Assembly (NCBI RefSeq): GCF_902769175.1
Contig: NZ_CACXNW010000003.1
Span: 62,001 to 126,000 of the forward strand
Direction of reading: 5' to 3'
Source of the DNA: an uncultured Methanobrevibacter sp.
GTDB taxonomy: Archaea; Methanobacteriota; Methanobacteria; Methanobacteriales; Methanobacteriaceae
DNA length: 64,000 nucleotides
A program made the translations under genes and the position numbers. The notes below the pieces were generated by a model, which was given only the letters and a program-made list of their open reading frames with translations, was not told the DNA's origin and did not search any database. This document shows, in pieces, positions 36,068-55,538 of this stretch. Within the stretch, counting starts at the first letter, position 1. Every line of letters starts with the position of its first letter.

Positions 36068-37330
36068 TTGAATCAGGAAATATTAGATAAAGCAGAGCAA
36101 TTAATTAATTATACAAATGGAAATATCTGTAATCACTGCCTTGGACGTAAGTTTTCAGACTGTGTGGACGGAAATGGAAATGAAGAAAGAGGCATTAAGA
36201 TTAGAGAGGCGCTAAATCTGGAACCATATGCTCCTAATGAAAGCAATAGGGAAAAATGCGCTGTTTGCCATGATTTATTTGAAGACATCGATACTAAAGT
36301 TCTTGATTTGGTGAGAGAAAAAATAGAATTCCTCAATGTTGAATTTGACACCTTTGTTGTAGGCTGCAAATTGCCAAAGGAAATCGTTGAAAAGGATCAG
36401 GAAATCAGCGACGAATTTGATTGCAATGTTGAAATAATCAAAAAGGAAGTCAATAGAGAAATTGGAAAGATGCTTGAAGCTAATCTTGAACAGAAAGCTG
36501 ATTTTGATGGGGAAGATGTTCTTGTAATGGTTGACTTTAGAAGAATATTGAATGAAGGACAGGAAAATCCAATTAGAGTCAGACTTCAAATCAATCCAAT
36601 CTTCATTGAAGGAAGATACAGAAAGCTTATTAGAGGCATACCTCAAACCAAATGGCCTTGCACCAAATGTAAAGGAAAAGGCTGTGAAGAATGCAATTTC
36701 ACTGGAAAGCAGTACCCAGAATCAGTTGAAGAGCTTTTATCTGAAGTTGTCCTAAAGCATGCAAATGGTTACGAAGCCAAATTCCATGGTGCCGGTAGGG
36801 AAGACATAGATGTTAGAATGCTTGGTACAGGAAGGCCATTCGTTCTTGAAATAAAAGAGCCTAAGATAAGAAAGATAGACTTTGACAAGATATCCGAAGA
36901 GGTTTCACAAACAGCTAAAGGAAAAACAGAATACCTAAACCTTAAGTTTACAGAAAGAAAACGAAAAGTGGAGATAAAGGGATCATCTCCAGACACCTAT
37001 AAAGTTTATAGGGCTCTTGTCAAATGTGAGGATGACATTAAGGAAGAGGACTTGGAAAAGCTCCAATCCCTCCATATCATTCAGCAAAGAACTCCTATAA
37101 GGGTTTCACATAGAAGGGCAGATAAGATTAGGGAAAAGGAAGTCAAAAATATTGAAGCTAAATTCATAGACTCTAAAACCTTTGAAATGATTATAAAAAC
37201 AGAAGGCGGGTTATATATTAAAGAGCTTATCTCCAGCGATGAAGGAAGATCCAATCCAAGTGTAAGCGAAGTATTAGGCACCCAAGCCATTTGTGCCGAA
37301 CTTGATGTGATTGAAGTTGGAATAAAATAA
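36068..37330 (+). CDS. pus10: tRNA pseudouridine synthase Pus10
   Basis: A 420-residue Pus10 that makes pseudouridine at tRNA positions 54 and 55. The N-terminal THUMP-containing half has cysteine pairs 'CNHCLG' (21-24) and 'CAVCHD', and a zinc insert 'CTKCKGKGCEEC' near 200. The catalytic region is 'GREDIDVRMLGTGRPFVLEI', with the catalytic Asp in 'DVR'. It starts with TTG at 36068 after GAGAGGAATT. It is the last ancestral gene before the accessory island. Confidence 0.94.
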   Translation: MNQEILDKAEQLINYTNGNICNHCLGRKFSDCVDGNGNEERGIKIREALNLEPYAPNESNREKCAVCHDLFEDIDTKVLDLVREKIEFLNVEFDTFVVGCKLPKEIVEKDQEISDEFDCNVEIIKKEVNREIGKMLEANLEQKADFDGEDVLVMVDFRRILNEGQENPIRVRLQINPIFIEGRYRKLIRGIPQTKWPCTKCKGKGCEECNFTGKQYPESVEELLSEVVLKHANGYEAKFHGAGREDIDVRMLGTGRPFVLEIKEPKIRKIDFDKISEEVSQTAKGKTEYLNLKFTERKRKVEIKGSSPDTYKVYRALVKCEDDIKEEDLEKLQSLHIIQQRTPIRVSHRRADKIREKEVKNIEAKFIDSKTFEMIIKTEGGLYIKELISSDEGRSNPSVSEVLGTQAICAELDVIEVGIK

Positions 37331-37438
37331 GTCATACCATTTAACTAAACCAAAGATGCTGTTTAGAAAATAATTAAAAAAAAGGAATAAACAAAAAAAG
37401 GATTATAAAACCTATTTTAAAAACTGTTGAGGACGTGT

Positions 37439-37489
37439 CACAATTATTTTTAGTCAAAATTCGATATAATTATATTAAAAATAATTGTG
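37439..37489. other. Perfect 14-bp inverted repeat after pus10
   Basis: CACAATTATTTTTA (37439-37452) and TAAAAATAATTGTG (37476-37489) are exact reverse complements around 23 bases. It sits 108 bases after the pus10 stop at the left border of the accessory island. It could be a transcript-end hairpin or the footprint of a small mobile element. Confidence 0.6.
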
Positions 37490-37574
37490 GAACATCACCT
37501 ATTTCCAAAAAAAGGGAGAGTTTAAAAAACATTAAAATATAAGTTTATAAAAGAGAAACTATAAAACTGAATAT

Positions 37575-38615
37575 ATGGTTGAAATTTCAGTGATTATACC
37601 CACATACAATATAGAAAAACATATTCAAAAATGTTTAGATAGTGTAATCAATCAAAGCTTTAAAGATCTGGAAATAATATGCATTGATGACAAGTCAACA
37701 GACAATACTCTAAACATATTAAATGAATATGCCTTAAAAGACCCAAGAATAACAGTTTATCCAAAAGATGAAAACAAGGGAATAGGCGATTCAAGAAACA
37801 TATCATTAACACTTGCAAAAGGCAAATACATTTTCTTTTTAGACAGTGACGATTATATAGTGCCTGATGCACTCGAAAAGGCTTATAATATTTCTGAAGA
37901 AAAATCCTTAGACATTTTAATGTTTAAGATGATACATTTCTATGAGGACAGTGAAGACTATTTCAAAATTAGATACACAGAAATGAGATATTTAAAAAAA
38001 ATTGTACAAGATAAGGTCTTCAATTATAAGGATGTAGAGGAATACCTTTTTTACTTATGCGTAAACCTGCAATGCAAACTCTTTAGAAGGGACTTGATTT
38101 GCGATATAAGATTTCCAAATGAAAAAATATTTGAGGACACCCCCTTTTTCATTGAAGCCATGCTTAATGCTAAAAGGGTTTATTTTCTCCAAGAGCATTT
38201 AACCTACAAATGTGAGAGAAGGAGGTCCCTGTCACATACCCATGACTATAAAAATGCAGATATAATTTATATGGCGGATCATGTTAGTGATGTGTTAAAA
38301 AGAAATGACATCTTTGATGAATTAAAAACTAGTTATTTGCAATTTAGAATTAAACACATTACCTATTACTATAGGTATACAAAGTTCAGATATAAATCTA
38401 AATTCTATGTTCGGATGAGAAGGGATTTTATTGACAATAAACAGGAATATGATAAAGCTTACGATGACTTATACAAAATATACCAAATAATCTATGATTC
38501 TTGCATCAAAACGGAAAATGATAAAATATTTATGCTTAGATCCTTTTGTCAATTTTTAATGCATTTTCCAAGATTAATAATAGATTTTATAAGGGAATAT
38601 TTAAAATGGAGTTGA
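37575..38615 (+). CDS. GT2 family glycosyltransferase, copy 1
   Basis: A 346-residue inverting GT-A glycosyltransferase. The N-terminal nucleotide-sugar fold has 'VIIPTYN' (6-12), 'CIDDKSTDNT' with Asp38-Asp39, and the metal-binding 'LDSDDY' (89-94). The C-terminal 200 residues are helical and shared with the three paralogues downstream. No transmembrane helix is evident, so it acts in the cytoplasm or at the membrane surface. No ribosome binding site is obvious. Sugar and acceptor are unknown; surface polysaccharide or peptide glycosylation are both possible. It is the most diverged of the four. Confidence 0.88.
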   Translation: MVEISVIIPTYNIEKHIQKCLDSVINQSFKDLEIICIDDKSTDNTLNILNEYALKDPRITVYPKDENKGIGDSRNISLTLAKGKYIFFLDSDDYIVPDALEKAYNISEEKSLDILMFKMIHFYEDSEDYFKIRYTEMRYLKKIVQDKVFNYKDVEEYLFYLCVNLQCKLFRRDLICDIRFPNEKIFEDTPFFIEAMLNAKRVYFLQEHLTYKCERRRSLSHTHDYKNADIIYMADHVSDVLKRNDIFDELKTSYLQFRIKHITYYYRYTKFRYKSKFYVRMRRDFIDNKQEYDKAYDDLYKIYQIIYDSCIKTENDKIFMLRSFCQFLMHFPRLIIDFIREYLKWS

Positions 38616-38619
38616 TTGA

Positions 38620-39492
38620 TTGAATAAACAAGCAATCCTAATAATTGCCCATAATTATTCAAATTTGGAAATACTTAATAAACAATTAGATGTATTGGAT
38701 AGCGAATGCTTTGACATTTTCATCCATATTGATAGAAAATCAAAAATGAGAATTGAAGATATAAAAAAATGTGAAAACTCAAAGATGCATATTTACAAGA
38801 AATTTAGAACCTATTGGGGACACTCTTCACAAGTTTACTGCGAACTGTTTTTAATAAGAAAAGCATTGGAAACAGAAGAAAAATACGATTATCTTCATTT
38901 GATTTCAGGAGAAGATTTTCCATTGAAAAAGCCGGAAAAAATCCATGCTTACTTCAATAAACATTATGGAAAGGAATTTGTCCATTTTCAATGCTTAAAA
39001 CTAACAGAAAAAAAAGTATACTGGAATAAGTATTATAGATTCATAAGAAATCATAATGATGCATCATGGAGTAGAAGGATAGATATTAAGCTCCTGCATT
39101 TGCAGATGCGACTTAAAATAGATAGAACTAAAAGACGGGATATTAAACTTTATACTGGTGCTAACTGGTTTAGCATAACTGATAAATTCGCTGAATTTGC
39201 AATTTCCAAATCAGAATTAATGAAAAAACTAAGATTCACAGCACACCCAGATGAAATTTATATGCAAACAATTCTTTATAATTCAGAATTTAAGAATAAT
39301 CTCTATTATCAAGGATTTGATGACAATTATGATTCCTGCAAAAGATTGATCGATTGGAAAAGAGGAAAACCATACATATGGAAAATGGAAGATTTAAAGG
39401 AAATAGAGGAATCAAATTTTTTCTTTGCAAGAAAATTTGACATCAATACAGATAGGAAAATAATCGATTACCTAAACAAAAAACTAAAATAA
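38620..39492 (+). CDS. GT14 family (core-2/I-branching-like) glycosyltransferase
   Basis: 290 residues matching the Branch/beta-1,6-N-acetylglucosaminyltransferase family: 'ILIIAHNYSN' at the start, 'IFIHIDRKS' (about 33-41), 'YLHLISGEDFPLKKP' (91-105), 'TGANWFSIT' and 'HPDEIYMQTIL'. The presumed catalytic acid is the Glu of 'HPDEIY'. The TTG start at 38620 overlaps the GT2 stop region and has GGAGTTGAT, so it is translated with the preceding gene. Bacterial members build surface glycans. The acceptor here is unknown. Confidence 0.85.
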   Translation: MNKQAILIIAHNYSNLEILNKQLDVLDSECFDIFIHIDRKSKMRIEDIKKCENSKMHIYKKFRTYWGHSSQVYCELFLIRKALETEEKYDYLHLISGEDFPLKKPEKIHAYFNKHYGKEFVHFQCLKLTEKKVYWNKYYRFIRNHNDASWSRRIDIKLLHLQMRLKIDRTKRRDIKLYTGANWFSITDKFAEFAISKSELMKKLRFTAHPDEIYMQTILYNSEFKNNLYYQGFDDNYDSCKRLIDWKRGKPYIWKMEDLKEIEESNFFFARKFDINTDRKIIDYLNKKLK

Positions 39493-39666
39493 AAAAACAG
39501 ATAGGAAAATATAAACAACATATATGATATAAGTTTATATAAATCATTAAATACTATTTAATAAAAATATAAACTATTGTACTTAAATTGTAATTAAAAA
39601 GATATATAGAAAATATTAGGCAACTTGAAAAATACCTATTAATATTCATAACAAAGAGTGAAAAAA

Positions 39667-41106
39667 ATGGATGATGGCACCAATATTGAAAAAATTTATA
39701 AGGCTAGCGATATTGAAGCAAAATCAGACAGAAACATTGAAGAAATAGCGAAAAACCCAAAATCCGCATTATTTAAATTGGCATTTCCTGCAATTGTTTC
39801 TTTAGGAAGTATTTTCTTTGTTACATTTATGGATTCAATCTGGGTTAGTGGTTTAGGCCATGTAGAAGTTAGTGCAGTAGGATTATCCAGCCCAATATTC
39901 TTATTATTGACTGTTATTGGAATTGGAATTGGTAATTCCGTTAATGTATCTCTCTCAAAGTCTATGGCAGAACAAAATGTCCTGGAATCAAACAGTATTG
40001 TTAAAAATACACTAATAATGATTATTGCTCTAGGCATATTGGTTCCATTGATAGTACTGCCATTTTTAGATAAAATACTCTATGTTGTCGGTGCAGGCGT
40101 AAGCTTTGAGTACTGTTATGATTACTTAACTATTTTAATCTTATGCATGGGTATCTTCTTCACTACAGATATTGCACCATTCTTTTTAAGATTACAAGGT
40201 TATATTAAAGCACCCCTTTATATTACTGCCGCAACCTGTTTATTAAATGTTATCTTAGACCCTATCATGATATATACACTTCACTTAGGAATTAAAGGAG
40301 CTGCAATAGCAACCGTGATTTCAGCAGGTACAAGTGCTATCATTTATATTTTGGTGATAATTAGAAAAAAAGGAAAATATATTTCTGTTGGAAATATTGG
40401 TTATGATATAGATAGAGATTTTAATACCTTAAAAAAGAACTTAAAAATTGCTGGACCAATAATAGGCCAATCAATCATGTCATTGATTTTTACAATTTTA
40501 TTAAACAGATTCTTTATATATGAAGGTTTAGTGTATATTACAGCATACACTTTTAGTGGAAAAATAATGTCTTTCATAAGCATTCCATTATCCGCTTTTT
40601 CTTCATCAATGCTTTCAATCAGCGGATTCCTAATAGGCAGCCACCAATGGGAAGAAATTAGGGAAACTTTCAGATATTCCTTGATTGTAGTTGAGGTATG
40701 TACAATTATCCCTTGTCTCTTATTCTTCGTTGGATCAGACTTTTTAAGCTATACATTATACCAAACAAAGGATATGGTTGTAATAAATCAAATTTCATTA
40801 GCAATAAAATTCTTATCCGCATTTCACATATTCCAAGCAGGTGCCACCTTAGTGGATAGTATGTTCCTTTCAATTGAAAAGCCCTTCAAGTCATTTATAA
40901 TAATATTTGTCGGCATAATTGTAGATCTAATTGTCTTAAGCATAATGGTATACAACTTACATATCATAAATAGTGTTTATTATGTTTTATTGATTGGTTC
41001 ATTTGTGCAAATTACTATATACGGTCATATGCTCCGAAAAGATTTAGATGAGTTTTTAGAGAGAAAAAGGGCAGAAGATGAAGATGCAGATATAACTCCA
41101 AATTAA
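39667..41106 (+). CDS. MATE family efflux transporter of the NRPS island
   Basis: About 479 residues with 12 predicted helices and the two-fold MATE repeat ('NPKSALFKLAFPAIVSLGS', 'FMDSIWVSGLGHVEVSAVGL'). The start is placed at ATG 39667, whose GAGTGA ribosome binding site contains an in-frame GTG at 39658. It lies between glycosyltransferases and 3.9 kb from the 3' end of the NRPS. Pairing of NRPS genes with MATE exporters is common, so export of the peptide product or resistance to it is a reasonable guess. Confidence 0.9.
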   Translation: MDDGTNIEKIYKASDIEAKSDRNIEEIAKNPKSALFKLAFPAIVSLGSIFFVTFMDSIWVSGLGHVEVSAVGLSSPIFLLLTVIGIGIGNSVNVSLSKSMAEQNVLESNSIVKNTLIMIIALGILVPLIVLPFLDKILYVVGAGVSFEYCYDYLTILILCMGIFFTTDIAPFFLRLQGYIKAPLYITAATCLLNVILDPIMIYTLHLGIKGAAIATVISAGTSAIIYILVIIRKKGKYISVGNIGYDIDRDFNTLKKNLKIAGPIIGQSIMSLIFTILLNRFFIYEGLVYITAYTFSGKIMSFISIPLSAFSSSMLSISGFLIGSHQWEEIRETFRYSLIVVEVCTIIPCLLFFVGSDFLSYTLYQTKDMVVINQISLAIKFLSAFHIFQAGATLVDSMFLSIEKPFKSFIIIFVGIIVDLIVLSIMVYNLHIINSVYYVLLIGSFVQITIYGHMLRKDLDEFLERKRAEDEDADITPN

Positions 41107-41259
41107 AGGACTTCCAAATTAAAGGACTGATTGTTTAGACAAAAAACAATCCAAAATTTCTAAAATATTCATTTAAAAAAGATTTTTACAGACCAAAAAA
41201 TTAACACTTTTTAAAACAACCCCTCACTATTTTAAAAAAAATCATAATAAGATCATAAA

Positions 41260-42305
41260 ATGGTAGAAATTTCAGTTTTAATCCCTTCATATAATGTGGA
41301 AAAATATATCCGAGAATGCTTAGACAGCATAGCAAATCAAACCTTCGAGGATATGGAAATAATTTGCATTGATGATGGATCAACAGATTCGATTTTAGAT
41401 ATATTAAATAAGTATGCTTTAAAGGATTCTCGAATAAGAGTATATGAAAACAATGCAAATAAAGGAGTAGCATATACTAGAAACTATTTATTAAGTCTTG
41501 CAAAGGGACAATATGTCTCTTTTATAGATGCTGATGATTATCTTGAATTGGATGCCTCTGAAAAGCTCCATAACTTAGCTGAAGAAAAATCATTAGAAAT
41601 GCTGATGTTTAAGATAAGGCACTTTAATGATTTGACAAAAAAGAATTTGAATTCAATTACAGCGAGATGTATTATTTGGAGAGATTCATTGGAGACAATG
41701 TCTTCACTTTTGAGGATGTTAAGGAATTTGCTGCTGAAATGTGTGTCCATTTGCATGGAAAATTGTTTAGAAGAGACCTGATTCAGGATATTGAATTTCA
41801 AAGAGGACGCATATTTGAAGATTATCCTTTTTTCCTTGAAGCGCTAATCAAAGCAAAAAGAATGTATTTTTTCACAGAACATCTATACCACAAACGTGAA
41901 AGAGAAAAATCAATCATGACAAGTTATGATGAAAGCTATTTGGATTTTGTTGATGTGATAGATTTTTCAAAGGATGTTGCAAAAAGATATGGCATATATG
42001 AAGAATTTAAACCATATCTATTTCAATATTATATTCGTACAAATCAATTTATGATAATGCAATTAAGTTTGAAAACCCGATTGAAGTACTTTAAAAAAAT
42101 GAAGGAAAAATATACCGACTATAAAAATGAAATCGAAGAAATTTATTACGATTTATTCTTTATATATCAGACACTGTTTGATTCATGCCTTAAATCAAGC
42201 AATTACATTACATACGAAATAAGGAAAAACTATCTATTCAGAAAAAATAAAGAAAAATTCTGGCAAGAGAGAAAAATGGAAAATTCAGAGTGGGAAAAGA
42301 ATTAA
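41260..42305 (+). pseudogene. GT2 family glycosyltransferase, copy 2, frameshifted at an A6 tract
   Basis: The N-terminal catalytic part (41260 on, 'MVEISVLIPSYNVEKYIREC') and the C-terminal part (to 42305, 'MYYLERFIGDNVFTFEDVK') lie in different frames. They separate near 41635-41645, where this copy has ACAAAAAAG with six A and copies 3 and 4 have seven. With one more A it would read 'TKKEFEFNYSEMYYLER' and give one protein of about 348 residues like copy 3. The nucleotide-binding 'CIDDGSTDS' and a DxD variant 'IDADDY' (not 'MDSDDY') are present. Frame could be switched by slippage; otherwise the gene is a recent pseudogene. Confidence 0.85.
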
Positions 42306-42414
42306 TCTAAAAAATAGAATTTCGAAAAGTTAATGTGGGAGGAATATAAAAATATTATCAAAAAAGTGAAAAAAAAATTAAACATTTTTCAAAAAAAGGC
42401 AACACGGTAATAAC

Positions 42415-43458
42415 ATGGTTAAAATTTCAGTTTTAATCCCTTCATATAATGTGGAAAAATATATCAGAGAATGCTTAGACAGCATAGTTAATCAAACCTT
42501 CGAGGATATGGAAATAATTTGCATTGATGATGGATCAACAGATTCGACTTTGGATATATTGAATGAGTATGCCTTAAAGGATTCTCGATTGAGAGTGTAT
42601 GAAAACAAGGAAAATAAAGGAGTGAGCTATGCTCGAAACTATTTGTTAAATCTTGCAAAGGGAAAATACATCTTTTTTATGGATAGTGACGATTATCTCG
42701 AACTAGATGCCCTTGAAAAAGCTTATAATCTAACTGAAGAAAAATCATTAGACATCCTAATGTTTAAGATAAGGCACTTCAACAACAAGACAAAAAAAGA
42801 ATTCGAATCTGTTTATACTGAGATGCATTATTTGGAAAAATTCATTGGAGACCGGATTTTCGCTTATGAGGATGTTAAGAAATTTGCTCCCCACATATGC
42901 GTCAATTTACCTGGAAAATTATTGAAAAGAGATTTGATTCAGGATATAAAATTTCCAAATCGAAATATTTTTGAAGATAACCCTTTTTTCTTTGAAGCAC
43001 TTCTCAGGGCAAAAAGAATCTATTTTTTTAGAGAATACCTATGCAACAAACGGGAAAGAAAAAATTCCATTATGGAAAGCAAGGATGAAAGCTATTTGGC
43101 AATAATGGATAAGTTTGACAATATTATAGAGATTGCAAAAAGATATGGTAAATATGAAGAACTGAAACCATATTTTTTTAAACACTGCATATCTGTAAAT
43201 CAACAAAGGATAAGGGAAGTGAATTTAAAAACCAGATTTAAGTTTTTCAAAAAAATGAAACAATATTATATCTGCAATAAAAATGAAATCGAAGAAGTTT
43301 ATGATGAGATTCCCTTCCAGTATCAAACAATGTATGAAGCATGCATTGAATCCGACAATTATATTACATACGAATCAAGAGTATTATATCGTATAAATAG
43401 AAATTTAAAACAATACCGAAAAGATGTGGAAATGGAAAACTTAATTTGGAACAAATAA
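42415..43458 (+). CDS. GT2 family glycosyltransferase, copy 3 (intact)
   Basis: 347 residues, full length: 'VLIPSYN' (6-12), 'CIDDGSTDST' with Asp38-Asp39, 'FMDSDDY' (88-94) and the helical C-terminal half common to the cluster. Nearly identical in its N-terminal 100 residues to copies 2 and 4, so the array grew by recent tandem duplication. This is the only uninterrupted member of the closely related trio. Sugar and acceptor are unknown. Confidence 0.88.
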   Translation: MVKISVLIPSYNVEKYIRECLDSIVNQTFEDMEIICIDDGSTDSTLDILNEYALKDSRLRVYENKENKGVSYARNYLLNLAKGKYIFFMDSDDYLELDALEKAYNLTEEKSLDILMFKIRHFNNKTKKEFESVYTEMHYLEKFIGDRIFAYEDVKKFAPHICVNLPGKLLKRDLIQDIKFPNRNIFEDNPFFFEALLRAKRIYFFREYLCNKRERKNSIMESKDESYLAIMDKFDNIIEIAKRYGKYEELKPYFFKHCISVNQQRIREVNLKTRFKFFKKMKQYYICNKNEIEEVYDEIPFQYQTMYEACIESDNYITYESRVLYRINRNLKQYRKDVEMENLIWNK

Positions 43459-43507
43459 TAATATTATAGTATAAGGTCCTCAAAGGTTCCAATAAATCCA
43501 AACATTA

Positions 43508-43614
43508 GAGTGCTCGCCAAAAATATATTTTTATAAAAATTTATTTCTTTATTTTTAAAATGAATGGTTTTTAGATGTTTTTTTAGATATTTTTCATACT
43601 TTTAGCGGATACTC
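43508..43614 (+). mobile_element. MITE-like element A with terminal inverted repeats and CATTA duplication
   Basis: A 107-bp AT-rich element beginning GAGTGCTCGCC and ending GCGGATACTC, imperfect inverted ends. It is directly flanked by CATTA on both sides (43503-43507 and 43615-43619), a target-site duplication of five bases. A second copy in the opposite orientation is at 44694-44794. No coding capacity. Confidence 0.75.
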
Positions 43615-43615
43615 C

Positions 43616-44661
<1,046 letters not shown>

Positions 44662-44693
44662 TTCAATCTGCACTTATGGGATTTTCATTGACT

Positions 44694-44794
44694 GAGTGTC
44701 CGCCAAAACTATAAAAATTATTTCAAAAACATCTAAAAACCATTAATTTTAAAAATAAAGAAAAAAATTTTTAAAAAAATATTGGCGAGCACTC
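44694..44794 (-). mobile_element. MITE-like element B, inverted relative to element A
   Basis: A 101-bp element beginning GAGTGTCCGCC and ending GGCGAGCACTC. Reverse complemented, it matches element A along its length (for example TTTCTTTATTTTTAAAAT and GGTTTTTAGATGTTTTT). Its flanks show no matching target duplication. Together A and B enclose the decayed GT2 copy 4 like a composite unit. Confidence 0.75.
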
Positions 44795-44839
44795 ATATGA
44801 ATAAAAAAAACAGAAATATCATCAAAAACAGAAAAAAAA

Positions 44840-44938
44840 GAGACTGTAAAATTTTATAGGCTTATTTTAATTTTATTAGATTTCTTTATAAGTTAAAATC
44901 AATATTATGATTTTAAGCCTAAACTTTTTTACAAACTC
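44840..44938. mobile_element. 99-bp inverted-repeat element between the convergent GT and NRPS genes
   Basis: The left end GAGACTGTAAAATTTTATAG leads into GCTTA, and the right end read inverted is GAGTTTGTAAAAAAGTTTAG then GCTTA. An inner pair TTAAAATC/GATTTTAA forms a second stem. The outer GAGACTGTAAAA resembles the ends of the elements at 17164 and 17263. It lies between convergent transcription units, so it may also serve as a two-way terminator. The rest of 44662-45006 holds element B and nothing else. Confidence 0.55.
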
Positions 44939-45006
44939 AAAAAAAGAAACCATAGGAATAAAAAAAAAGGATTTTTAATAATCAATCCTAAAAATAGAAT
45001 CAACCA

Positions 45007-48000
45007 CTAAAAATCACCATTAAAGAAAGGAACCAACTTCCAATAGTCAACCTTCAGTATATCACTATGATTTGTAGACTCAATCAACTTGATTTTATTA
45101 TTCGGAGATATTAAATCTAATTTTTCATTAATTTGCTCAATTGTAAACAATTCGCCAGTTGATAAGTAAAGAACAGGGGAATTCAATCTTGGCTCCTTAA
45201 AGTCAATATTCACATTCTGCAAGGTTATTTCAACAAATTTTTCAAATTTAGTACCTTTTCTTTCAATTCCTACAATGAAATCAAATTCATGGTGCTTCCA
45301 ATGGACAAGTGCATCCTTATACAATGTCTCTCTTGTATAAAGGACATCTTTAAAGGCTAGTAAACCGTCTATAAGTATGCATTTAGCTGTCTTTCCTTCT
45401 TTTTCTAATTTTTCAGCTAAGAGAAGTGAGAATATTCCTCCGGAAGAGTATCCTACAAGAATATCTCCATCGTTGAAAATATCCTTTATCAACTCATAGA
45501 ACTTATCTAAAGTATACTTGCCATGATTCTCCAATGACTTAATTTCCTCTAAAGACAAATTGAATTTAGGATCGTCTATTGCATAAACATTTCCCTCAAA
45601 GTCAATGCTATGGACAAGATTTGAATATTCAAATGAAAATCCTGTCATAGGAGGAATTAAAAACATGTTTTGATCATTAATCCCTTTTTTAATGAGAGAG
45701 CATGAATTGTCACAATCAACATAATCTATTATCTGTGCAATACTATAAGGAGTTCTCTCAAGCAATATGCTCCTTGCATTAAACTCAATATTGTTTTTTG
45801 AAAGAAATGTTGTGACCCTGATTGATTTTAGGGAATCACCTCCCAATTTAACGAAATCATCATAAATGCCTATTTTCTCAAGATTGAAAACGGCTTTAAA
45901 TGCATCTACAACTATCTTTTCAGTTTCAGTTGATGGAGGCACATAATCTGACATCAAGCTTTCAAATTCCACTTCAGGCAAGGCATTCTTATCCACTTTT
46001 CCATTGACAGTTAAAGGAATCTCATCTAACTCAATGACATATGAAGGAATCATATAATGTGGCTTACGTTCAGTAACATGATCCTTCACTGACTTGACAA
46101 CAGGAAGAACATCATCATAAACAACATAGGCCACCAATTCATAATTGTCTCCATTCCTAATTGTTTGGACAGTGACATCCTTTACAAAAGTCAAATCACG
46201 AATTACAGCTTCCACTTCACCTAATTCAACCCGGTTTCCTCTAACCTTTACTTGACCATCCTTTCTTCCGATTATACCAAGGCTTCCATCAGGCAATACC
46301 CTAACCATATCACCAGTACGATACATCTTAGCATACTCTTCAATCTCTTCAAAAGGATTGTCTAAAAATGCATTTGAAGTTCCTTCATCACGATTCAGGT
46401 ACCCTTGGGCTAATTGACGGCCGGATAAGTATAATTCCCCTAATGCACCTATAGGCACCCTTCGAAGTTCCTCATCCAAGACATAGGATTTCATATTATA
46501 GGAAATATAGCCTACAGATGAATGATGGATCTTTTGAGAATTGCTTATATGGGAGACATAGTTGAAAGTTTCAGTTGGACCATAGGAATCAACCAATTGG
46601 TAGTTCTCAGGACTTGCAACATCCCCTAACTTTTCACCGATGACAAAGAGCACATCAAGTGGAGCATCATCAACATCCTCCATAAAGAGCTTTCCAAGCT
46701 GTGTTGTGATAAATGAATGTGTAATGTTCTGACTAATGAAATAATCATTTAATTTAGCCATATTCAGCCTAGCATCCTCTGGAATGACAGACAAGCATGC
46801 CCCAGCAATAATCGATACAGCAATGACAAAAATGCTTACATCAAATCCTATTGCAGTATGCAATCCATAAACGTCATTGCTGTCCAAATCATAATTGTCA
46901 ATATAATATTGGCAAAGGTTAGTGATTGCCTTTCTCCTGCCTAATACTCCCTTAGGCACACCAGTACTTCCACTGGTATAATGAACGCTTACCAAATCAC
47001 CATATTCATATTCCAAATAGCTTAAAGTCCCAATATCTTCCTTAACAATATTAGAGACATTTATAAGAATCAAATCATCAGATAAGGCTTTAGCCCTTTC
47101 ATAGGTATCATCAGTTACAATAAGCACTCTTGAATCAATATCATTTAAAATGAATTTCAAACGTTCATCAGGATGAATGTCGTCTAATGGAACATATATG
47201 GCACCAACAGACAGGATTCCAAGATTTAACAATGGATACCATTCGCTGCGAGGAACCAGGAATGGAACAAAATCACCAGATTGGATGCCTGCTCCATTTA
47301 AAAGCTTTTTAATCTCATTTGCAATAAATGCACCCTCTCCATAAGTATAGGAAATGTCATTATAGGAAACAAGCTTATTGTCAGGACATTTGGCGAGATT
47401 ATCATTAAATGCATCTAAAATATCATCATAGATAATTTCCATTTCCCTTTCGTTATAGCTGTCCAATAGCTCCAAGTCGGAAGAGTCAGTATATTCAATG
47501 TCTGATAATTTTTCAACACACATCATTTGTGATAAGACCCTATTGTATGTCTCCATAAACCTATTTATTGTAGACTTGGAATACTTGCTTGAATACTGGG
47601 CATTTAAAGTATATCCATCATCTTTTTGATTTACGTTCATTATCAAATCCATATTGAAGTCAACAATATTGTCAATTATCTTATTGTCAACATTATAGAA
47701 TAAATCATCCTTGTTTAACCAAGCAGGGAAGAATTGGAATAATATTTCCATATCCAACTCATGATCAAATATCAAATTCCTATAAGGATAATAATTATAC
47801 CGAAGCACATTGTAAATTAAATTAGACATATCCTCAACAAATAAGGAGATTTCCTTATCCTCTGTATCAACCAATAAAGGCAAGGTATTGACATACATTC
47901 CAATTGAGTCAAAATTGTTAAACCTGTCACGACCATGGTCATCAACACAGAATCCAACCTTATTGCTTCCTGTAAATCTAGATAATGTATAGGAAAATAC

Positions 48001-51000
48001 ACTGGTAAAGAAAACATATTCGCTGATTGAATTTTTTCTTAAAAACTCTTCAAGCAAATCACGATCAAAATCCAAATCACAAGATGCGAAGCCTGGACCA
48101 TCAGGCAAAACATCTTCCAATAATTGGCCCGCGCTATCAAAATCTGATAACATGGAACCATAAAACTCCTGAGCATCCTTGTATTGTTCAGTATTTTTAA
48201 TTTGGGTATGGAATGCAGAAACCTTTAAGAATGAATCATCGAATTTGATTGATTCTTCAGAGGAATCTGAAATCAAATCAGCCAATTCTTCATTAGAATA
48301 GGCAATTAAATCAACTCTTTCTTCATCAAATGATGAATTGCTGAAATCAATGTATCCTCCATTCAGGATATGTTTAAAATCATGTTTAAATACATGGATA
48401 GACCTTTCATCAAAAATTAAGTGGTGGAAAACAGAATACAATACATGACCGTCATCATTCTTAACTATTAAAAATCTGCATAAGCTGTCATGCAAATCAA
48501 AAGGATCGGCTAAAAACTTATAAATCTCTATGTCATCAGCATTAGACATAACTGAAATGGAAGGCACTCTGCCTTTTACCATATGAGGAATTTCATAATC
48601 ATCGTTAATGCACATTGAACAAATTGGATGAACCATGAAAAGCATGTTTAAAGCAGTTATTATTTCATTTTCATCAAACTCTTTAGGAATAGGAATTACG
48701 AATGGAATGAAGTAGGAATCTACATCCATCCTTGTGGCAACATCCAAATAAATATTCAGTTGAGACTCATTTAAAGGACAGCCTTCATCTATAGAATAAA
48801 TATCCCACTCAAAAGTATCTTCTGTAATGTTATCTGCAATTGCCTTTGGAGTGCGCAGACTCATAATGTCTGCAGAGGTGACATTGTAATCCTTAAGATA
48901 GGAAATCAATTTAATGGCTATTAATGAATCACCACCTAAATTGGCAAAATCATCAAGCAAACTGATTTTTGACATGTTGAATGCATTTTCAAATGCATTG
49001 ACAATATCCTTTTCAACATCTGTTCTTGGAGCTATATACTCTGTTTTTGAATCATTGAATCCAATATCCAATAATGCCTTCTTATCAACTTTTCCATTGG
49101 CATTTAGAGGAATCCTTTCTAAATTGATGATATGTGAAGGAACCATATAATCAGGCTTGTTTTCACTTATAAACTCTTTAATAGAGTCATTATACTTCTC
49201 ATCACAAACAATATATGCCACCAATTCATGATTATCTCCATTTTGAATCGTTTGAACGCTAAGGTCTTTTACATAATCCAATTGGCGAATAATCGCTTCA
49301 ACTTCTCCCAATTCAAGACGATTGCCTCTGATTTTCACTTGAGTGTCACGACGGCCAATGAATCCAATGGTTCCATCAGGAAGAATCCTAACCATGTCTC
49401 CTGTACGATACATTATGCTATAGCCATCATCGTATGGATTATCAGTAAAAGGATTGTCAAGAAATGCTTCTGCTGTTTTTTCTGGACGGTTTAAGTAGCC
49501 GTCAGCAAGTTGGTCACCTGACAGGTACAACTCTCCAACTGCTCCAACAGGAACCCTGCGTAATTCATCATCAAGGACATAGGATTTCATATTGTAATCG
49601 ATTAAACCTACTGATGAATAGTCAATCTTTTCATTATTTTCAATTGCTGTTACAAATGCAAATGCTTCAGTAGGACCATATGCATCAACCAGCGCATAAT
49701 CTCCAGAATTATCAAATTCCCCTAGCTTTTCACCGATAACAAGCAAAAGATCCAAATAGCTGCAGTCAACATTATTCATGAATAGCTTTGAAACCTGAGT
49801 TGTAATGAAGGCATGGCTAACATTCTGCTCTTTGAAGTATTCGTTCATCCTATGCATGTCAAGCCTGATTTCATCTGGAACCACAGAGAGACAAGCTCCA
49901 GAATAAAGAACTGCATTGATGACAAAAATTGTCACATCAAATCCAATTCCTGAGAAGAGCCCATAAACATCATTTTCATCCAAATCATATTTGTCATTAT
50001 AGAAAGCGCAAACATTTAAAATGGATTTTCTGGTATTTTTAACACCTTTAGGAAGACCGGTAGTGCCGCTGGTATATAATATACAAGCCAAATCATTATA
50101 GGAAACCGACAATTGTGACAATTCTCCATTTACATTAATATCTGCCACATTCAATAAGGTTAAATCAGCAAACAGTTCCTTTGCACGTGGATATGTGCTG
50201 TCATCAACAATAATGACCTTGGAAGAGGTGTCTTCCACCATGAATCTTAGACGCTCATCAGGATGAGAGCTATCCAATGGAACGAAAATGCTTCCACTTG
50301 CTAAAATTCCTAAAATGCTGAACAAATACCATTCACTACGACTAAGCAAGAAAGATACACATTCACCAGATTCAATTCCCAAATCATTTAGATTATTGCT
50401 TATTTGAGATGCAATAAAAGCCCCTTCTGCATAGGAATAGGAACTGTCCTTAAATGAAACCAAGGCATTATCAGGATTTTTAGACAAGTTATCATTAAAG
50501 GCATCTAAAATATCGGCATAATCCATATCCTTTTCTGTTTGATTGAAGGAATCTAAAAATTCCAAATCCTTTTCACAGACATAATTGATGTCAGCCAATA
50601 AGTCAACATCCAAAATTTCCAATGCAATCCTGCTGAAAGCATCAATGAATGACTTGACAAAATCAATGCTGAATTTGTTTGAATGGAAAACCCTAACTGC
50701 AAATCTTCCATCATTGCAATCATATAGATTAAACAATAGGTCGCTGTTTTCATCATGCCTTAACTCTTCAATAGAAAAATTATCGCTTTGAATCATGCTA
50801 GGAAGATATTGGAATAGAATGCTTGAATCCAAATCATATTCATTAGCTAAAACACGGAATGGATACAAGTCGTATTTCATTGCAGAATTAACCATATCTG
50901 CAGAATATCTTAAGAAAGAGCTGACGCTTTGATTCTTGCAATCCAATAGCAAAGGCAAAGTACGAACAAACATTCCTACAGAGTTTGATAAATCGATATG

Positions 51001-54000
51001 TCCTCTTCCATCTTCAAGCAAATTAAACAAGACCTTGGAAGATCCTGTAAATCTGGATAATGCATAAGCAAAAACACTTGAGAAAAATTGATTGTGAGTG
51101 ATTGAGTGGCTTTGCAAAAAGTCTCTTAATTTGCTGTTGTCCATTTCCAAACAGGAGATGATTTCTCTACATTCATTGGAAGATTTCAAGTCAGAAATAT
51201 CTCCATCACCCAAGCTTACAGAAGGCATCAAATCAGAAATATCCTCACCATCAAAACTAACAGAAGGTATCAAATCAGAAACTTCATCACGACTAGCCAA
51301 CATCATATCAAAGAAATCCTGTGCCTCTTTGGAATAGTCTGAATCCAATATGCTCTCTTCAAATGAAATTTGCCTTAAAATACCATCATCAATTGAATTT
51401 ACTTTAGAACCCTGTAAAATTTTTAAAAATGGTTCTGAAAGAACATTGGCAGAAGCACCATCAAAAATTAGATGATGATAATCCATACATAATACTGTTG
51501 AATTTTCAGTGTTTGCTATCAAAAATCTGGATAGATACTTATCCAATTCAAAAGGTTGGACAAACTCATCAATCTCATCAATCGATCCTTCTTTGATTTC
51601 TGGATTGGCATCAAAACTAAGGTATAAATCACCTTCATCATTAACAACACGAGAGGATAAAACAGGATAAACTTCCAATAAACTTTTTATAGCATTTCTT
51701 ATTTCATCTACAGAATAGGAATGATTGAATTCGATTTTAAATGGATTATTATATTCTGTTTTTGCTTCATACCCCATTTCATCAAAATAAACGTTTAATT
51801 GAGACTCAGATAATGGGCATAATCCATCAAATGTATATTTAACATCAATTGTTGTGTGAAGATTCAAATTAAATTTGATTTTGTTTGCAATATTTGCAGG
51901 ATTTCCAAGTTCAATTAGTTCATTGGAAGATAAGGTTACTCCTGTTTTTTCTTTCAATAAGATTTGCATTTTCATTGCAGATAAAGAGTTGCCTCCAAAT
52001 TCCACAAAATCACTATCTATCAAAATAATATCCTGATTTAAAACTTCTTTAAAAGCCTGAATAACAATATAAAGAATCTCATCTTCAATATGATCACTAT
52101 AATTTTGCTTCTTTAACATTTCCTTTATGGAACCCTTATCAATTTTACCATTAACATTTAAAGGAATCTTTTCTAATTCTATAAATAATGAAGGAACCAT
52201 ATAATAAGGCAATTCCATTTTTAAAGCATCTGTTACATCCTCCATATCGACTTCATCATTGATTGTGTAGAAAGCAATGAGAGTATCATGGTCCACATCC
52301 AAATAAATCTCAGAAAACTCATTGAATTCTTTCATAATATTTAAAATCTCATCGGATTCTACCCTAAATCCTCTAACGGATAATTGGTTATCCTCACGGC
52401 CGACAATTTCAATTTCACCATCAAAATTAAAAAAGCCAATATCTCCTGTACGATACATCTTTCCATTATCACTAAATGGATCATCAACAAAGACTTTCTT
52501 GGTTAAATCAGGGTCATTATAATATCCGGAACTTATATACTCACTGGAAATACATATTTCTCCTGGAACGCCTATTGGCATCTGATTAAAATTTTCATCC
52601 AGCACATAAACTCTTTCATTTGGGATTGGTCCACCGATTGATACTTTTTCACTACTTATATCATTTAAATCATAAACTTTCAAAACTCCAATGATTATTT
52701 CAGTTGAACCGTAAATATTGACTAATTTGGTATGTCTCTCTTTTTTAATTAATTCATTTAATTTTGAACCGACTAAACACAAATAATCTAATTTTAAATC
52801 TTCATTTTCATAAATAGGAACCCCTATAGATGGAGGCAAAACTAAACTATTCATAGGATGCTCTTTAAGGGATTTGATCAACAATAAAATATCCTTTTGT
52901 TCCCGTTCATTGAAAATCCTAATGCAACAGCCATAGATTAATGTTACAAATATCAGATATGATGCTATAAAACTAAAGCTAAGGAAACATCCAACAACCT
53001 CACCTGGAGAAATATTAAAAAAATGTGTTATTATAAAGGGCAAGTTAGAAATTTGCTTATTTAAAATCATAACTCCCTTTGGAATATTGCTTGTTCCTGA
53101 AGTGAACATAATGGAAAATAAATCATTGCCCTTAGGGATTATCTCCACATCGACTTCATCATCATAGCTCAAATCTTCAAGAAGTATTGTATCAATATTG
53201 AAATTATTTGAATTTGCAACATCCCTTGTTGTAATGATTTTTTCTATCTGTGCAATATTTATCATATATTCTATACGATTAATAGGCAATAAAAGGTCAA
53301 TTGGAACAAATGCAGCGCCAATTTTATTCAATGCCAATACCAATTCAGGGAAATGATAATCACGAGGAAGCATTAACGCAACATGATCTTTGAAACCAAT
53401 TCCATAATTCTCATGCAAGTCATTAGCAACTGAATTGCTTGACTTTTCCAAATCTCCATAAGAAACCTTATTTACCCCATCATCAACGGCTATTGCATCA
53501 GGATGGGCTAAGGCATAGTCGCGGAAATTTTTTGCAAATACCCCGTCATCATCAATTTCAATTTCCTTTCCCTTGCAAAAATCTGAAAGCAAATCTTTTT
53601 CATTAGGTGAAAGAAGATTAATGTCTTTTAAAAGCTGATTAGGGCAATCAATTAGATCCTTTATCAAAAACTCAATATTTTCTGCCATATGATTCATGTA
53701 AACATCTGAAAAAAGATCCTGACTATAAACTAAATTCAATGAATTTTCATAAACATTTAATGTTAAAGAAGAATTTTCTCCATTTAATACAGTCACATCT
53801 TCAGACAATCCAGTAAAATCATAAATGCCGTATGAATAAAATACAGTATTCAAATAATTGTCAATATCCACTTTTGTATTTTCAGTTGCAAGTTTGTAAA
53901 CTTTCTTAATTTCCTTTAAATAATCAAGGAATGAATAATCTTTAAAAAATTTAATTTTTAAATATGTGCTTTTATCAAATAATCCAAAATCATTGGATAC

Positions 54001-54666
54001 AACAGATTTTAAAATGGAACCAGGAGATCTATCGATTCTAGACAAATATAGTGCAAAAATTGCAGTAAAGAAATTGAATTTAGAAATATCATGCTCATTT
54101 AAAAATTTAGTGGTGGCCTCATTATCAAATGAAATTTCAATATTTCTATAATCATCTGATTTGAGGTTATAGAACTTAACATAATTACCGGCATCTGAAA
54201 AATAATTATTCCAAAAATCAGAATCTCTTTTAAAATCATATGAAGATAAATAATCATCTACATCATCATAATATCCTAAAAGGTCATTTTCAACTGATTT
54301 ATACTGTGGATTATTAAAAATCTCACAAAATTTATTTATTGAAGAATAATCAAAAATCAAATGATGGATATTTGCTAAAATAGTTAATTTTTCATTATTT
54401 TTTAAAACTAAAAATTTGTATAATGGTGAATCAATAACAATATCAAACTTGAAATTAAAGAATGAATCAATTTCCCTATCAATCTCATTAATATTAAAAT
54501 CAGAAACATCGTTAAATTCATAAATTATTTCATCGTTAGTGTAAAAAGGTTTTAAATTTTCATCAAAACGTATATTTAATAAAGATTCAATTCCTTTAAA
54601 AAAATCCGCCAAATAATCATTATCAGCGGGAATATTCTTTATTAAAAATTTAATTTCATTATTCAT
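45007..54666 (-). CDS. Three-module nonribosomal peptide synthetase with terminal thioesterase
   Basis: 3,219 residues, uninterrupted. Order: condensation 1 ('HHLIFDYSS', ~100), adenylation 1 ('FTSGTSNIPKG' ~520, 'YGSTE' ~650), carrier 1 ('FGGNSL' ~889); C2 ('HHLIFDGAS' ~1063), A2 ('YTSGTTGLPKG' ~1529, 'YGPTE' ~1662), carrier 2 ('LGGDSL' ~1908); C3 ('HHLIFDERS' ~2079), A3 ('YTSGSTGVPKG' ~2563, 'YGPTE' ~2694), carrier 3 ('LGGDSL' ~2940); thioesterase ('GYSSGG' ~3072, final His ~3198). The product should be a three-unit peptide or peptide-like compound. C1 lacks about 20 N-terminal residues including the 'LSxxQ' motif. A1 appears to lack the usual pocket Asp. GGTGGTC precedes the ATG. No phosphopantetheinyl transferase is in the window. 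Confidence 0.95.
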   Translation of the reverse strand: MNNEIKFLIKNIPADNDYLADFFKGIESLLNIRFDENLKPFYTNDEIIYEFNDVSDFNINEIDREIDSFFNFKFDIVIDSPLYKFLVLKNNEKLTILANIHHLIFDYSSINKFCEIFNNPQYKSVENDLLGYYDDVDDYLSSYDFKRDSDFWNNYFSDAGNYVKFYNLKSDDYRNIEISFDNEATTKFLNEHDISKFNFFTAIFALYLSRIDRSPGSILKSVVSNDFGLFDKSTYLKIKFFKDYSFLDYLKEIKKVYKLATENTKVDIDNYLNTVFYSYGIYDFTGLSEDVTVLNGENSSLTLNVYENSLNLVYSQDLFSDVYMNHMAENIEFLIKDLIDCPNQLLKDINLLSPNEKDLLSDFCKGKEIEIDDDGVFAKNFRDYALAHPDAIAVDDGVNKVSYGDLEKSSNSVANDLHENYGIGFKDHVALMLPRDYHFPELVLALNKIGAAFVPIDLLLPINRIEYMINIAQIEKIITTRDVANSNNFNIDTILLEDLSYDDEVDVEIIPKGNDLFSIMFTSGTSNIPKGVMILNKQISNLPFIITHFFNISPGEVVGCFLSFSFIASYLIFVTLIYGCCIRIFNEREQKDILLLIKSLKEHPMNSLVLPPSIGVPIYENEDLKLDYLCLVGSKLNELIKKERHTKLVNIYGSTEIIIGVLKVYDLNDISSEKVSIGGPIPNERVYVLDENFNQMPIGVPGEICISSEYISSGYYNDPDLTKKVFVDDPFSDNGKMYRTGDIGFFNFDGEIEIVGREDNQLSVRGFRVESDEILNIMKEFNEFSEIYLDVDHDTLIAFYTINDEVDMEDVTDALKMELPYYMVPSLFIELEKIPLNVNGKIDKGSIKEMLKKQNYSDHIEDEILYIVIQAFKEVLNQDIILIDSDFVEFGGNSLSAMKMQILLKEKTGVTLSSNELIELGNPANIANKIKFNLNLHTTIDVKYTFDGLCPLSESQLNVYFDEMGYEAKTEYNNPFKIEFNHSYSVDEIRNAIKSLLEVYPVLSSRVVNDEGDLYLSFDANPEIKEGSIDEIDEFVQPFELDKYLSRFLIANTENSTVLCMDYHHLIFDGASANVLSEPFLKILQGSKVNSIDDGILRQISFEESILDSDYSKEAQDFFDMMLASRDEVSDLIPSVSFDGEDISDLMPSVSLGDGDISDLKSSNECREIISCLEMDNSKLRDFLQSHSITHNQFFSSVFAYALSRFTGSSKVLFNLLEDGRGHIDLSNSVGMFVRTLPLLLDCKNQSVSSFLRYSADMVNSAMKYDLYPFRVLANEYDLDSSILFQYLPSMIQSDNFSIEELRHDENSDLLFNLYDCNDGRFAVRVFHSNKFSIDFVKSFIDAFSRIALEILDVDLLADINYVCEKDLEFLDSFNQTEKDMDYADILDAFNDNLSKNPDNALVSFKDSSYSYAEGAFIASQISNNLNDLGIESGECVSFLLSRSEWYLFSILGILASGSIFVPLDSSHPDERLRFMVEDTSSKVIIVDDSTYPRAKELFADLTLLNVADINVNGELSQLSVSYNDLACILYTSGTTGLPKGVKNTRKSILNVCAFYNDKYDLDENDVYGLFSGIGFDVTIFVINAVLYSGACLSVVPDEIRLDMHRMNEYFKEQNVSHAFITTQVSKLFMNNVDCSYLDLLLVIGEKLGEFDNSGDYALVDAYGPTEAFAFVTAIENNEKIDYSSVGLIDYNMKSYVLDDELRRVPVGAVGELYLSGDQLADGYLNRPEKTAEAFLDNPFTDNPYDDGYSIMYRTGDMVRILPDGTIGFIGRRDTQVKIRGNRLELGEVEAIIRQLDYVKDLSVQTIQNGDNHELVAYIVCDEKYNDSIKEFISENKPDYMVPSHIINLERIPLNANGKVDKKALLDIGFNDSKTEYIAPRTDVEKDIVNAFENAFNMSKISLLDDFANLGGDSLIAIKLISYLKDYNVTSADIMSLRTPKAIADNITEDTFEWDIYSIDEGCPLNESQLNIYLDVATRMDVDSYFIPFVIPIPKEFDENEIITALNMLFMVHPICSMCINDDYEIPHMVKGRVPSISVMSNADDIEIYKFLADPFDLHDSLCRFLIVKNDDGHVLYSVFHHLIFDERSIHVFKHDFKHILNGGYIDFSNSSFDEERVDLIAYSNEELADLISDSSEESIKFDDSFLKVSAFHTQIKNTEQYKDAQEFYGSMLSDFDSAGQLLEDVLPDGPGFASCDLDFDRDLLEEFLRKNSISEYVFFTSVFSYTLSRFTGSNKVGFCVDDHGRDRFNNFDSIGMYVNTLPLLVDTEDKEISLFVEDMSNLIYNVLRYNYYPYRNLIFDHELDMEILFQFFPAWLNKDDLFYNVDNKIIDNIVDFNMDLIMNVNQKDDGYTLNAQYSSKYSKSTINRFMETYNRVLSQMMCVEKLSDIEYTDSSDLELLDSYNEREMEIIYDDILDAFNDNLAKCPDNKLVSYNDISYTYGEGAFIANEIKKLLNGAGIQSGDFVPFLVPRSEWYPLLNLGILSVGAIYVPLDDIHPDERLKFILNDIDSRVLIVTDDTYERAKALSDDLILINVSNIVKEDIGTLSYLEYEYGDLVSVHYTSGSTGVPKGVLGRRKAITNLCQYYIDNYDLDSNDVYGLHTAIGFDVSIFVIAVSIIAGACLSVIPEDARLNMAKLNDYFISQNITHSFITTQLGKLFMEDVDDAPLDVLFVIGEKLGDVASPENYQLVDSYGPTETFNYVSHISNSQKIHHSSVGYISYNMKSYVLDEELRRVPIGALGELYLSGRQLAQGYLNRDEGTSNAFLDNPFEEIEEYAKMYRTGDMVRVLPDGSLGIIGRKDGQVKVRGNRVELGEVEAVIRDLTFVKDVTVQTIRNGDNYELVAYVVYDDVLPVVKSVKDHVTERKPHYMIPSYVIELDEIPLTVNGKVDKNALPEVEFESLMSDYVPPSTETEKIVVDAFKAVFNLEKIGIYDDFVKLGGDSLKSIRVTTFLSKNNIEFNARSILLERTPYSIAQIIDYVDCDNSCSLIKKGINDQNMFLIPPMTGFSFEYSNLVHSIDFEGNVYAIDDPKFNLSLEEIKSLENHGKYTLDKFYELIKDIFNDGDILVGYSSGGIFSLLLAEKLEKEGKTAKCILIDGLLAFKDVLYTRETLYKDALVHWKHHEFDFIVGIERKGTKFEKFVEITLQNVNIDFKEPRLNSPVLYLSTGELFTIEQINEKLDLISPNNKIKLIESTNHSDILKVDYWKLVPFFNGDF

Positions 54667-55247
54667 ATGACCACCAGTATAATATAATATTTAATCAATA
54701 TACTATATAATTTTTAATTATATTTCTTATATTAATTAATGTTCAATATTGCTGCCTACCACCTTTATATTTCCTAAAAAAAATAAAAGACCACTATTAC
54801 TGCCAAACCACATTCATAGCCCCTATAAAATTTAATTTTTTTAGTTTAACTACAAGGTTTTAATAAAGAGCCCAATTAAAAAAAAAAACATAACATTTAT
54901 TAATATCTTAAGTTATATATTATAATATTATCAAAAATAGAAGATTAGATTATTGCTGAAATCTAGTCATTAAAATTTTATGATATTTTATTATATTTTT
55001 GATATTTTTTTCTTTCAATGTATAATATTTAGATATGTTTTAATCAATTAAACCTACGGTTAGGGCTAAGTCTAAATGAAGATTATGCATTGGCTTTTAC
55101 ACTGAATAGCTAAACCGAAGGGCTTAAGCTATGATATTCAACTTAAATATTGTACTAGGCTACTAGCTATTTAAAAAGATATAAAATGATGGGTTTTATA
55201 TTTTGATACTATTAAATATTAAAAAACAATATTAAAGAGGTATAAAA
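54667..55247. promoter_or_regulatory. Divergent region between NRPS and rpl21e
   Basis: 580 bases. The NRPS side has a TATA-like AATTATATAGTA near 54702-54712 on the minus strand. The rpl21e side has GGTTTTATATTTT near 55192-55204 and the ribosome binding site AAAGAGGTATAAAA. Between them (55048-55165) is a markedly less AT-rich, structured stretch listed separately. No ORF is seen. Confidence 0.5.
55048..55165 (+). ncRNA. Candidate structured RNA upstream of rpl21e
   Basis: GC content is 34 of 90 bases in 55051-55140, against about 12 percent just upstream. Foldable elements are CCTA-CGGT-TAGG (55053-55064), a longer hairpin ATAGCTAAACC-GAA-GGGCTTAAGCTAT (about 55106-55132), and CTAG-GCTA-CTAG (about 55158-55169). 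A TATA-like TATAATATTTAG at 55021 is correctly placed for a transcript starting near 55046. It could be an independent small RNA or the leader of rpl21e. It does not read as a tRNA, and no clear C/D or H/ACA box set was found. Confidence 0.4.
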
Positions 55248-55538
55248 ATGCAAAGATCCAGAGGATTTAAAAGTAGAAGTAGAAAAAAATTGACCAAAAG
55301 AGTAAGACCTGGTCGTTCTAACCCAATCACCAGAAGAATTCAAAAATTTGATAACGGTGCTATGGTTCACATTATCATCGACCCAAGTATCCAAAAAGGC
55401 CAACCTCATTCCAGATTCCATGGAAAAACTGCTAAAGTAGTTGACAAAAAAGGTAAAGCTTACATACTTGCATTAAAAGATGGTAATAAAGCAAAAGAAT
55501 TAATCGTTACTCCTGAACACTTAAAATTACAAGAGTGA
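55248..55538 (+). CDS. rpl21e: 50S ribosomal protein L21e
   Basis: A 96-residue L21e: '[18 protein letters not shown]' start, '[19 protein letters not shown]' middle, standard length. AAAGAGGTATAAAA precedes the ATG. It overlaps or abuts rpb4, and heads the L21e-Rpb4-DUF655-RsmA-HemK2 run, which is conserved in many euryarchaea. Confidence 0.96.

What the first reader, a model, noticed from the sequence alone, without database searches (positions are those of the whole stretch)
37331..55247. Glycosyltransferase/MATE/NRPS island inserted between pus10 and rpl21e
SRP54-Pus10 and L21e-Rpb4-DUF655-RsmA-HemK2 look like two halves of one information-processing neighbourhood on the same strand. The 17.9-kb interval has entirely accessory content, a perfect inverted repeat at its left edge, three small inverted-repeat elements, pseudogenes and a poly-A tract: the picture of a horizontally acquired or expanding biosynthetic island.
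Basis: inference. Interest (0 to 1): 0.65.

Follow-up and report, generated by a model that had tools for sequence, protein, structure and literature searches.

The report
Methanogen peptide-synthetase island at conserved junction
One gut-methanogen species carries about 17.5 kb of peptide-synthesis, export and sugar-transfer genes at a spot where all twelve comparable relatives have two housekeeping genes side by side; it is a real lineage-specific insertion of a kind already known from rumen methanogens, and beside it lies a conserved RNA leader that appears undescribed.

Summary
In all 12 genus relatives with both genes on one contig, pus10 and rpl21e are 411-475 bp apart. Only the window genome has 17.9 kb there. 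The interval holds two glycosyltransferases, a MATE exporter, a decaying tandem glycosyltransferase array, two ~100-bp MITE copies, a 38-nt poly-A run and an intact three-module NRPS (C-A-T x3, then TE).
The genome has about ten NRPS loci; relatives searched with this NRPS show none to a few. The nearest kin of the NRPS domains sit in other rumen Methanobrevibacter, and each domain has a different nearest relative, so the gene is a mosaic. No integrase, tRNA, terminal repeat or codon signature marks it as a mobile element or a fresh import from bacteria. Whether the glycosyltransferases belong to the peptide pathway is unproven.
NRPS-MATE clusters in rumen Methanobrevibacter are published (PMC2812497, PMC8241843), so this is a new member of a known kind.
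The last ~350 bp of the interval are not accessory. They are the native rpl21e promoter and a strongly covarying RNA leader, present once upstream of rpl21e in all 15 genus genomes where rpl21e is assembled, and absent from Rfam.

The parts
34550..35890 (+). SRP54 (left flank)
   Evidence: Pfam SRP54 domains
36068..37330 (+). pus10 (left flank; next to rpl21e in relatives)
   Evidence: Pfam Pus10_C; full-length genus homologues 75-90% identical
37331..54870 (.). lineage-specific insertion; exact ends not resolvable because the ancestral spacer is variable
   Evidence: empty site 411-475 bp in 12 relatives
37427..37500 (.). left-edge inverted-repeat element (14-bp perfect arms 37439-37452 / 37476-37489), probably an IS-end remnant
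   Evidence: sequence; 86% copy on contig 40 and 79% copy on contig 7
37575..38615 (+). GT1, GT2-family glycosyltransferase
   Evidence: PF00535; best full-length genus hit outside this genome 43%
38620..39492 (+). Branch-type (core-2/I) glycosyltransferase
   Evidence: PF02485
39658..41106 (+). MATE exporter
   Evidence: PF01554; only other strong match in 139 family genomes is beside the giant NRPS on contig 6 of the same genome, 54% identity
41260..42305 (+). GT copy 2, frameshifted in an A-run (41260-41781 and 41667-42305)
42415..43458 (+). GT copy 3, intact
   Evidence: PF00535; 87% DNA identity to copy 2 over 300 nt
43508..43614 (+). MITE copy a, flanked by the 5-bp direct repeat CATTA
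43619..43656 (+). 38-nt poly-A run
43657..44661 (+). GT copy 4, pseudogene (5' end lost, stop codons)
44694..44794 (-). MITE copy b, inverted relative to copy a
45007..54666 (-). intact three-module NRPS, 3219 aa, C-A-T-C-A-T-C-A-T-TE
   Evidence: Pfam; motifs, third carrier domain and TE read from the sequence
54890..55247 (+). native rpl21e promoter (TTTATTAATATC) and structured leader RNA (from about 54926)
   Evidence: conserved in 15 genus genomes; 12 pairs changed on both sides against 2.7 in shuffles; model search
55248..55538 (+). rpl21e (right flank), followed by rpb4
   Evidence: PF01157, PF03874

Best explanation
An ancestral pus10-rpl21e junction was opened in one Methanobrevibacter lineage by an insertion just upstream of the rpl21e promoter. 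The insert is an NRPS-MATE export cassette (convergent NRPS and exporter genes, as on contig 6 of the same genome) with glycosyltransferase genes beside it, later enlarged by tandem glycosyltransferase duplication and decorated by MITEs. Most likely working (inferred): a phosphopantetheinyl transferase encoded elsewhere in the genome primes the three carrier domains; the first C domain may N-acylate the first residue; three residues are joined; the TE domain releases a short, possibly lipid-tailed, peptide; the MATE protein exports it. The glycosyltransferases probably serve surface polysaccharide rather than the peptide. The NRPS gene comes from a pool shared and recombined among rumen Methanobrevibacter. 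Shown: insertion, domain order, intact motifs, paralogue expansion, mosaic kinship. Inferred: product, export, means and number of insertion events.
For: Empty site in 12 of 12 relatives; adjacency ancestral, kept in three further genera. NRPS complete, with TE and carrier serines. A PPTase (PF01648, 56 bits, over cut-off) on contig 18. About ten NRPS loci in the genome. The window MATE and a 54% paralogue next to the contig-6 NRPS, in the same convergent order, are the only strong matches in 139 family genomes. A2 domain 72% identical to an NRPS in a genome whose Pus10 is only 61% identical; other domains have other nearest relatives. Glycosyltransferases without a close genus counterpart. 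MITEs with 5-bp target duplications.
Against: No transposase, integrase, tRNA or significant terminal repeat explains a one-step insertion. Codon usage is host-like. Other strains of this species could not be examined, so age and fixation are unknown. The genome is a draft of 65 contigs; a misjoin at the glycosyltransferase repeats or the poly-A run would turn 'insertion' into 'rearrangement'. No expression or product evidence.
Confidence: 0.8

Rival explanations
1. The island was assembled stepwise at a permissive junction: glycosyltransferases, exporter and NRPS arrived separately and never formed one pathway.
For: The spacer upstream of rpl21e is occupied by unrelated genes in other genera, including adhesin-like, nucleotide-reductase-like and transposase-like sequence (gene names judged from the translations, not searched). 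The glycosyltransferases have different kin from the NRPS. The array sits between MATE and NRPS, which are adjacent on contig 6.
Against: NRPS and MATE keep the convergent order seen on contig 6, so at least that pair behaves as a unit.
Confidence: 0.45
2. A mobile genetic element (integrative element or plasmid) carried the whole island in.
For: Size, lineage specificity, IS-like remnant at the left edge.
Against: No integrase, transposase or replication gene in the interval, no tRNA in the window, no edge-to-edge repeat beyond chance.
Confidence: 0.07
3. A draft-assembly artefact joined unrelated segments at repeats or at the poly-A run.
For: 38-nt poly-A next to a MITE, tandem repeats, draft of 65 contigs.
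Against: Glycosyltransferase copies are only 61-87% identical, too divergent for easy collapse; MITE a has a clean target duplication; the NRPS coding frame is intact; the family occurs at several other loci of this genome.
Confidence: 0.08
4. The block is ancestral and was lost in all relatives.
For: Strains lacking NRPSs next to strains that have them are reported in rumen Methanobrevibacter (PMC8241843).
Against: All 12 relatives have a short spacer with native promoter and leader, and the same adjacency occurs in three other genera, so many precise losses would be needed.
Confidence: 0.04

Closest known systems
Methanobrevibacter ruminantium M1 NRPS clusters mru_0068/0069 and mru_0351/0352 (PMC2812497)
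   Same: NRPS with N-terminal C domain and terminal TE next to a MatE exporter, in the same genus
NRPS biosynthetic clusters of rumen Euryarchaeota (PMC8241843: average 3.8 clusters per archaeal genome, patchy among close relatives)
   Same: Patchy, lineage-specific NRPS content in rumen Methanobrevibacter, with links to Firmicutes
   Different: No insertion site was found described in the passages read; here the empty and filled sites are defined, and this genome has about ten NRPS loci
NRPSs of rumen Lachnospiraceae (e.g. isolate AC2029, locus L100)
   Same: About 48% identity over a whole C-A-T module
   Different: Domains nest inside Methanobrevibacter clades and are not the nearest kin of this gene
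Archaeal ribosomal-protein leader RNAs (L4, eL15, S15; PMC7247131), for the side finding
   Same: Structured RNA upstream of a ribosomal-protein gene in archaea
   Different: No eL21 leader in that paper's main text and no Rfam match

Membership tests
Modular NRPS (C-A-T with TE) | Condensation, adenylation and carrier domains in modules, with intact motifs | tested here: met
   Pfam domains; HHLIFD-type C motifs x3, A core motifs x3, carrier GG[ND]S x3, GYSSGG of the TE
Modular NRPS (C-A-T with TE) | Priming phosphopantetheinyl transferase available | tested here: met
   PF01648 match over cut-off on contig 18
Modular NRPS (C-A-T with TE) | Makes a peptide product | not testable with these tools
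   Needs expression and mass spectrometry
Methanobrevibacter NRPS-MATE cluster | MatE exporter gene next to the NRPS | tested here: inconclusive
   MATE lies in the same interval but is separated from the NRPS by the glycosyltransferase array; directly adjacent on contig 6
Genomic island | Filled and empty site in related genomes | tested here: met
   17.9 kb against 411-475 bp in 12 relatives
Genomic island | Integrase, tRNA or attachment repeats | tested here: not met
Genomic island | Foreign base or codon composition | tested here: not met
   NRPS codon distance and GC3 within the range of the other window genes; glycosyltransferases slightly lower in GC
MITE | Short non-coding element with terminal inverted repeats, target duplication and several copies | tested here: met
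   ~101-107 bp, GAGTGYYCGCCAAAA ends, CATTA and TTAAC duplications at two copies, 14 end matches genome-wide with 0 in control
Ribosomal-protein leader RNA (side finding) | Covarying structure immediately upstream of a ribosomal-protein gene | tested here: met
Ribosomal-protein leader RNA (side finding) | Binds its protein and regulates it | not testable with these tools
   Needs binding and reporter assays

The most novel reading that the evidence does not exclude
This NRPS family radiated inside rumen methanogens and was passed from archaea to rumen Lachnospiraceae rather than the other way round: in both the A- and C-domain trees the bacterial sequences nest within Methanobrevibacter clades. 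The window genome, with about ten loci, would be a centre of that archaeal expansion.
Probability: 0.25. Interest if true: 0.65.

Novelty: new member of a known kind. Interest (0 to 1): 0.42.

Why it matters
It gives a defined empty and filled site for an NRPS island in a methanogen, so gain, loss and donor can be studied; it points to NRPS modules shuffling between methanogen genera that share a gut and to a link with rumen bacteria. The neighbouring leader RNA would, if confirmed, add an eL21 leader to the very short list of archaeal cis-regulatory RNAs.

Tried and rejected
Mobile element: no integrase, tRNA or significant terminal repeats. Foreign composition: not seen. Recent paralogue of another NRPS of the same genome: rejected, most domains have their best match in another species. 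Single close donor: rejected, 45-72% identity and a different nearest relative per domain. First genome-contig scan with one sequence found nothing; an alignment query found 34 loci. The leader region as a known RNA: no Rfam match at gathering threshold, and at the relaxed threshold only a chance antisense hit to a KRAS model. Substrate prediction from A-domain codes was read by eye and gave no recognisable code, so no substrate is claimed.

Full report
What is there. The window is G000:C3:62001-126000 of a 3.12-Mb draft genome.

Insertion. pus10 and rpl21e are 411-475 bp apart in all 12 relatives with both genes on one contig, and 17,920 bp apart here. Other genera of the family: in the sampled loci the adjacency is kept in two of four g6 genomes and in the g7 and g16 genomes; in g5 and g15 pus10 was not found in the 1.5 kb upstream of rpl21e and other genes stand there in most. 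So adjacency is ancestral and the junction is permissive. The exact ends cannot be fixed because the ancestral spacer outside the promoter is variable.

Content. Left to right: an IS-end-like inverted repeat; GT1 and a Branch-type glycosyltransferase; a MATE exporter; three tandem copies of a GT2-family gene (unit 1.15-1.2 kb), the first with a one-base frameshift in an A-run and the last truncated; two inverted MITE copies around the last one; and a complete NRPS. The MITE has GAGTGYYCGCCAAAA ends and 5-bp target duplications at two copies (CATTA here, TTAAC on contig 6); 14 end matches in the genome, none to the reversed control pattern. In one frame of 3219 codons the NRPS reads C-A-T-C-A-T-C-A-T-TE with the catalytic motifs present. 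A PPTase gene exists on contig 18.

Kinship. The genome has about ten NRPS loci with roughly 28 adenylation domains (counted by me, joining split hits and leaving out five stand-alone ligases; domain maps of most loci). Several of these loci are frameshifted. Of the 18 genus relatives, 8 had a strong match to this NRPS. The window NRPS is not a fresh copy of another one in the genome: its domains are 45-72% identical to their best matches, mostly in other Methanobrevibacter, and the best match changes from domain to domain. A2 is 72% identical to a genome (RUI021) whose Pus10 is only 61% identical, against 75-90% for Pus10 in the genus, which points to exchange between genera. The MATE has one strong relative in 139 family genomes: the one beside the giant NRPS on contig 6, in the same convergent order. 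Hence NRPS plus MATE is taken as the core cassette. Codon usage is host-like.

Bacterial link. Lachnospiraceae, including isolate AC2029 on a 3.86-Mb contig, carry NRPSs about 48% identical over the module. In A- and C-domain trees they nest among Methanobrevibacter sequences. The bacterial sample was drawn with archaeal sequence patterns and the trees used a quick search, so direction of transfer is open; earlier papers favour bacteria to archaea (PMC2812497; PMC8241843).

Native RNA at the right edge. The last ~350 bp of the interval are conserved in the genus. Structure z-score -4.05; 12 pairs with changes on both sides against 2.7 in shuffles, 95.9% of cells paired against 32-46% when slid. 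A model of its 3' part matches 15 of 139 family genomes, exactly the 15 genus members in which rpl21e was found, once each, always upstream of rpl21e. Another genus has its own, different conserved leader. No Rfam match and no eL21 leader in the main archaeal leader paper found (PMC7247131). A leader that regulates rpl21e is the natural reading; this is inference.

Verdict. A genuine lineage-specific insertion of a known kind of gene cluster, with genome-wide NRPS expansion. Mode of entry and product remain open.

Noticed in passing
window 54890-55247: Conserved, covarying leader RNA upstream of rpl21e, one per genome in all 15 genus genomes with rpl21e assembled; no Rfam family. The invariant AAACC and the GGGUUUU of the last hairpin could pair alternatively (not tested).
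   Followed up: yes
L077, L080, L082, L085, L086, L088, L089, L090, L092 (260 nt upstream of rpl21e): A different genus of the family (g5) has its own conserved rpl21e leader with the core GTTACTAGTATTTATGGGC...ATACTAGGTAGCTGATAAC and a possible UGGG-CCCA pseudoknot.
   Followed up: partly
L098-L101, L103, L106, L110: Rumen Lachnospiraceae NRPSs nest inside Methanobrevibacter NRPS clades in A- and C-domain trees; possible archaea-to-bacteria transfer.
   Followed up: partly
L039, L040 (G000:C6:5926-25093): A single 5880-residue open NRPS frame with five adenylation domains, next to the closest relative of the window MATE and with a MITE copy about 1.3 kb upstream.
   Followed up: partly
L053 (G013:C29): A different NRPS plus MATE lies a few kb from the SRP54 side of pus10 in another species, and that assembly breaks between pus10 and rpl21e.
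   Followed up: partly
L086 (G060), 319 nt upstream of rpl21e: The contig end upstream of the rpl21e promoter reads like the end of a transposase gene (by eye), another sign that this junction accepts insertions.
   Followed up: no
window 56032-56307: Three tandem 83-bp AT-rich repeats in the long gap between rpb4 and DUF655.
   Followed up: no
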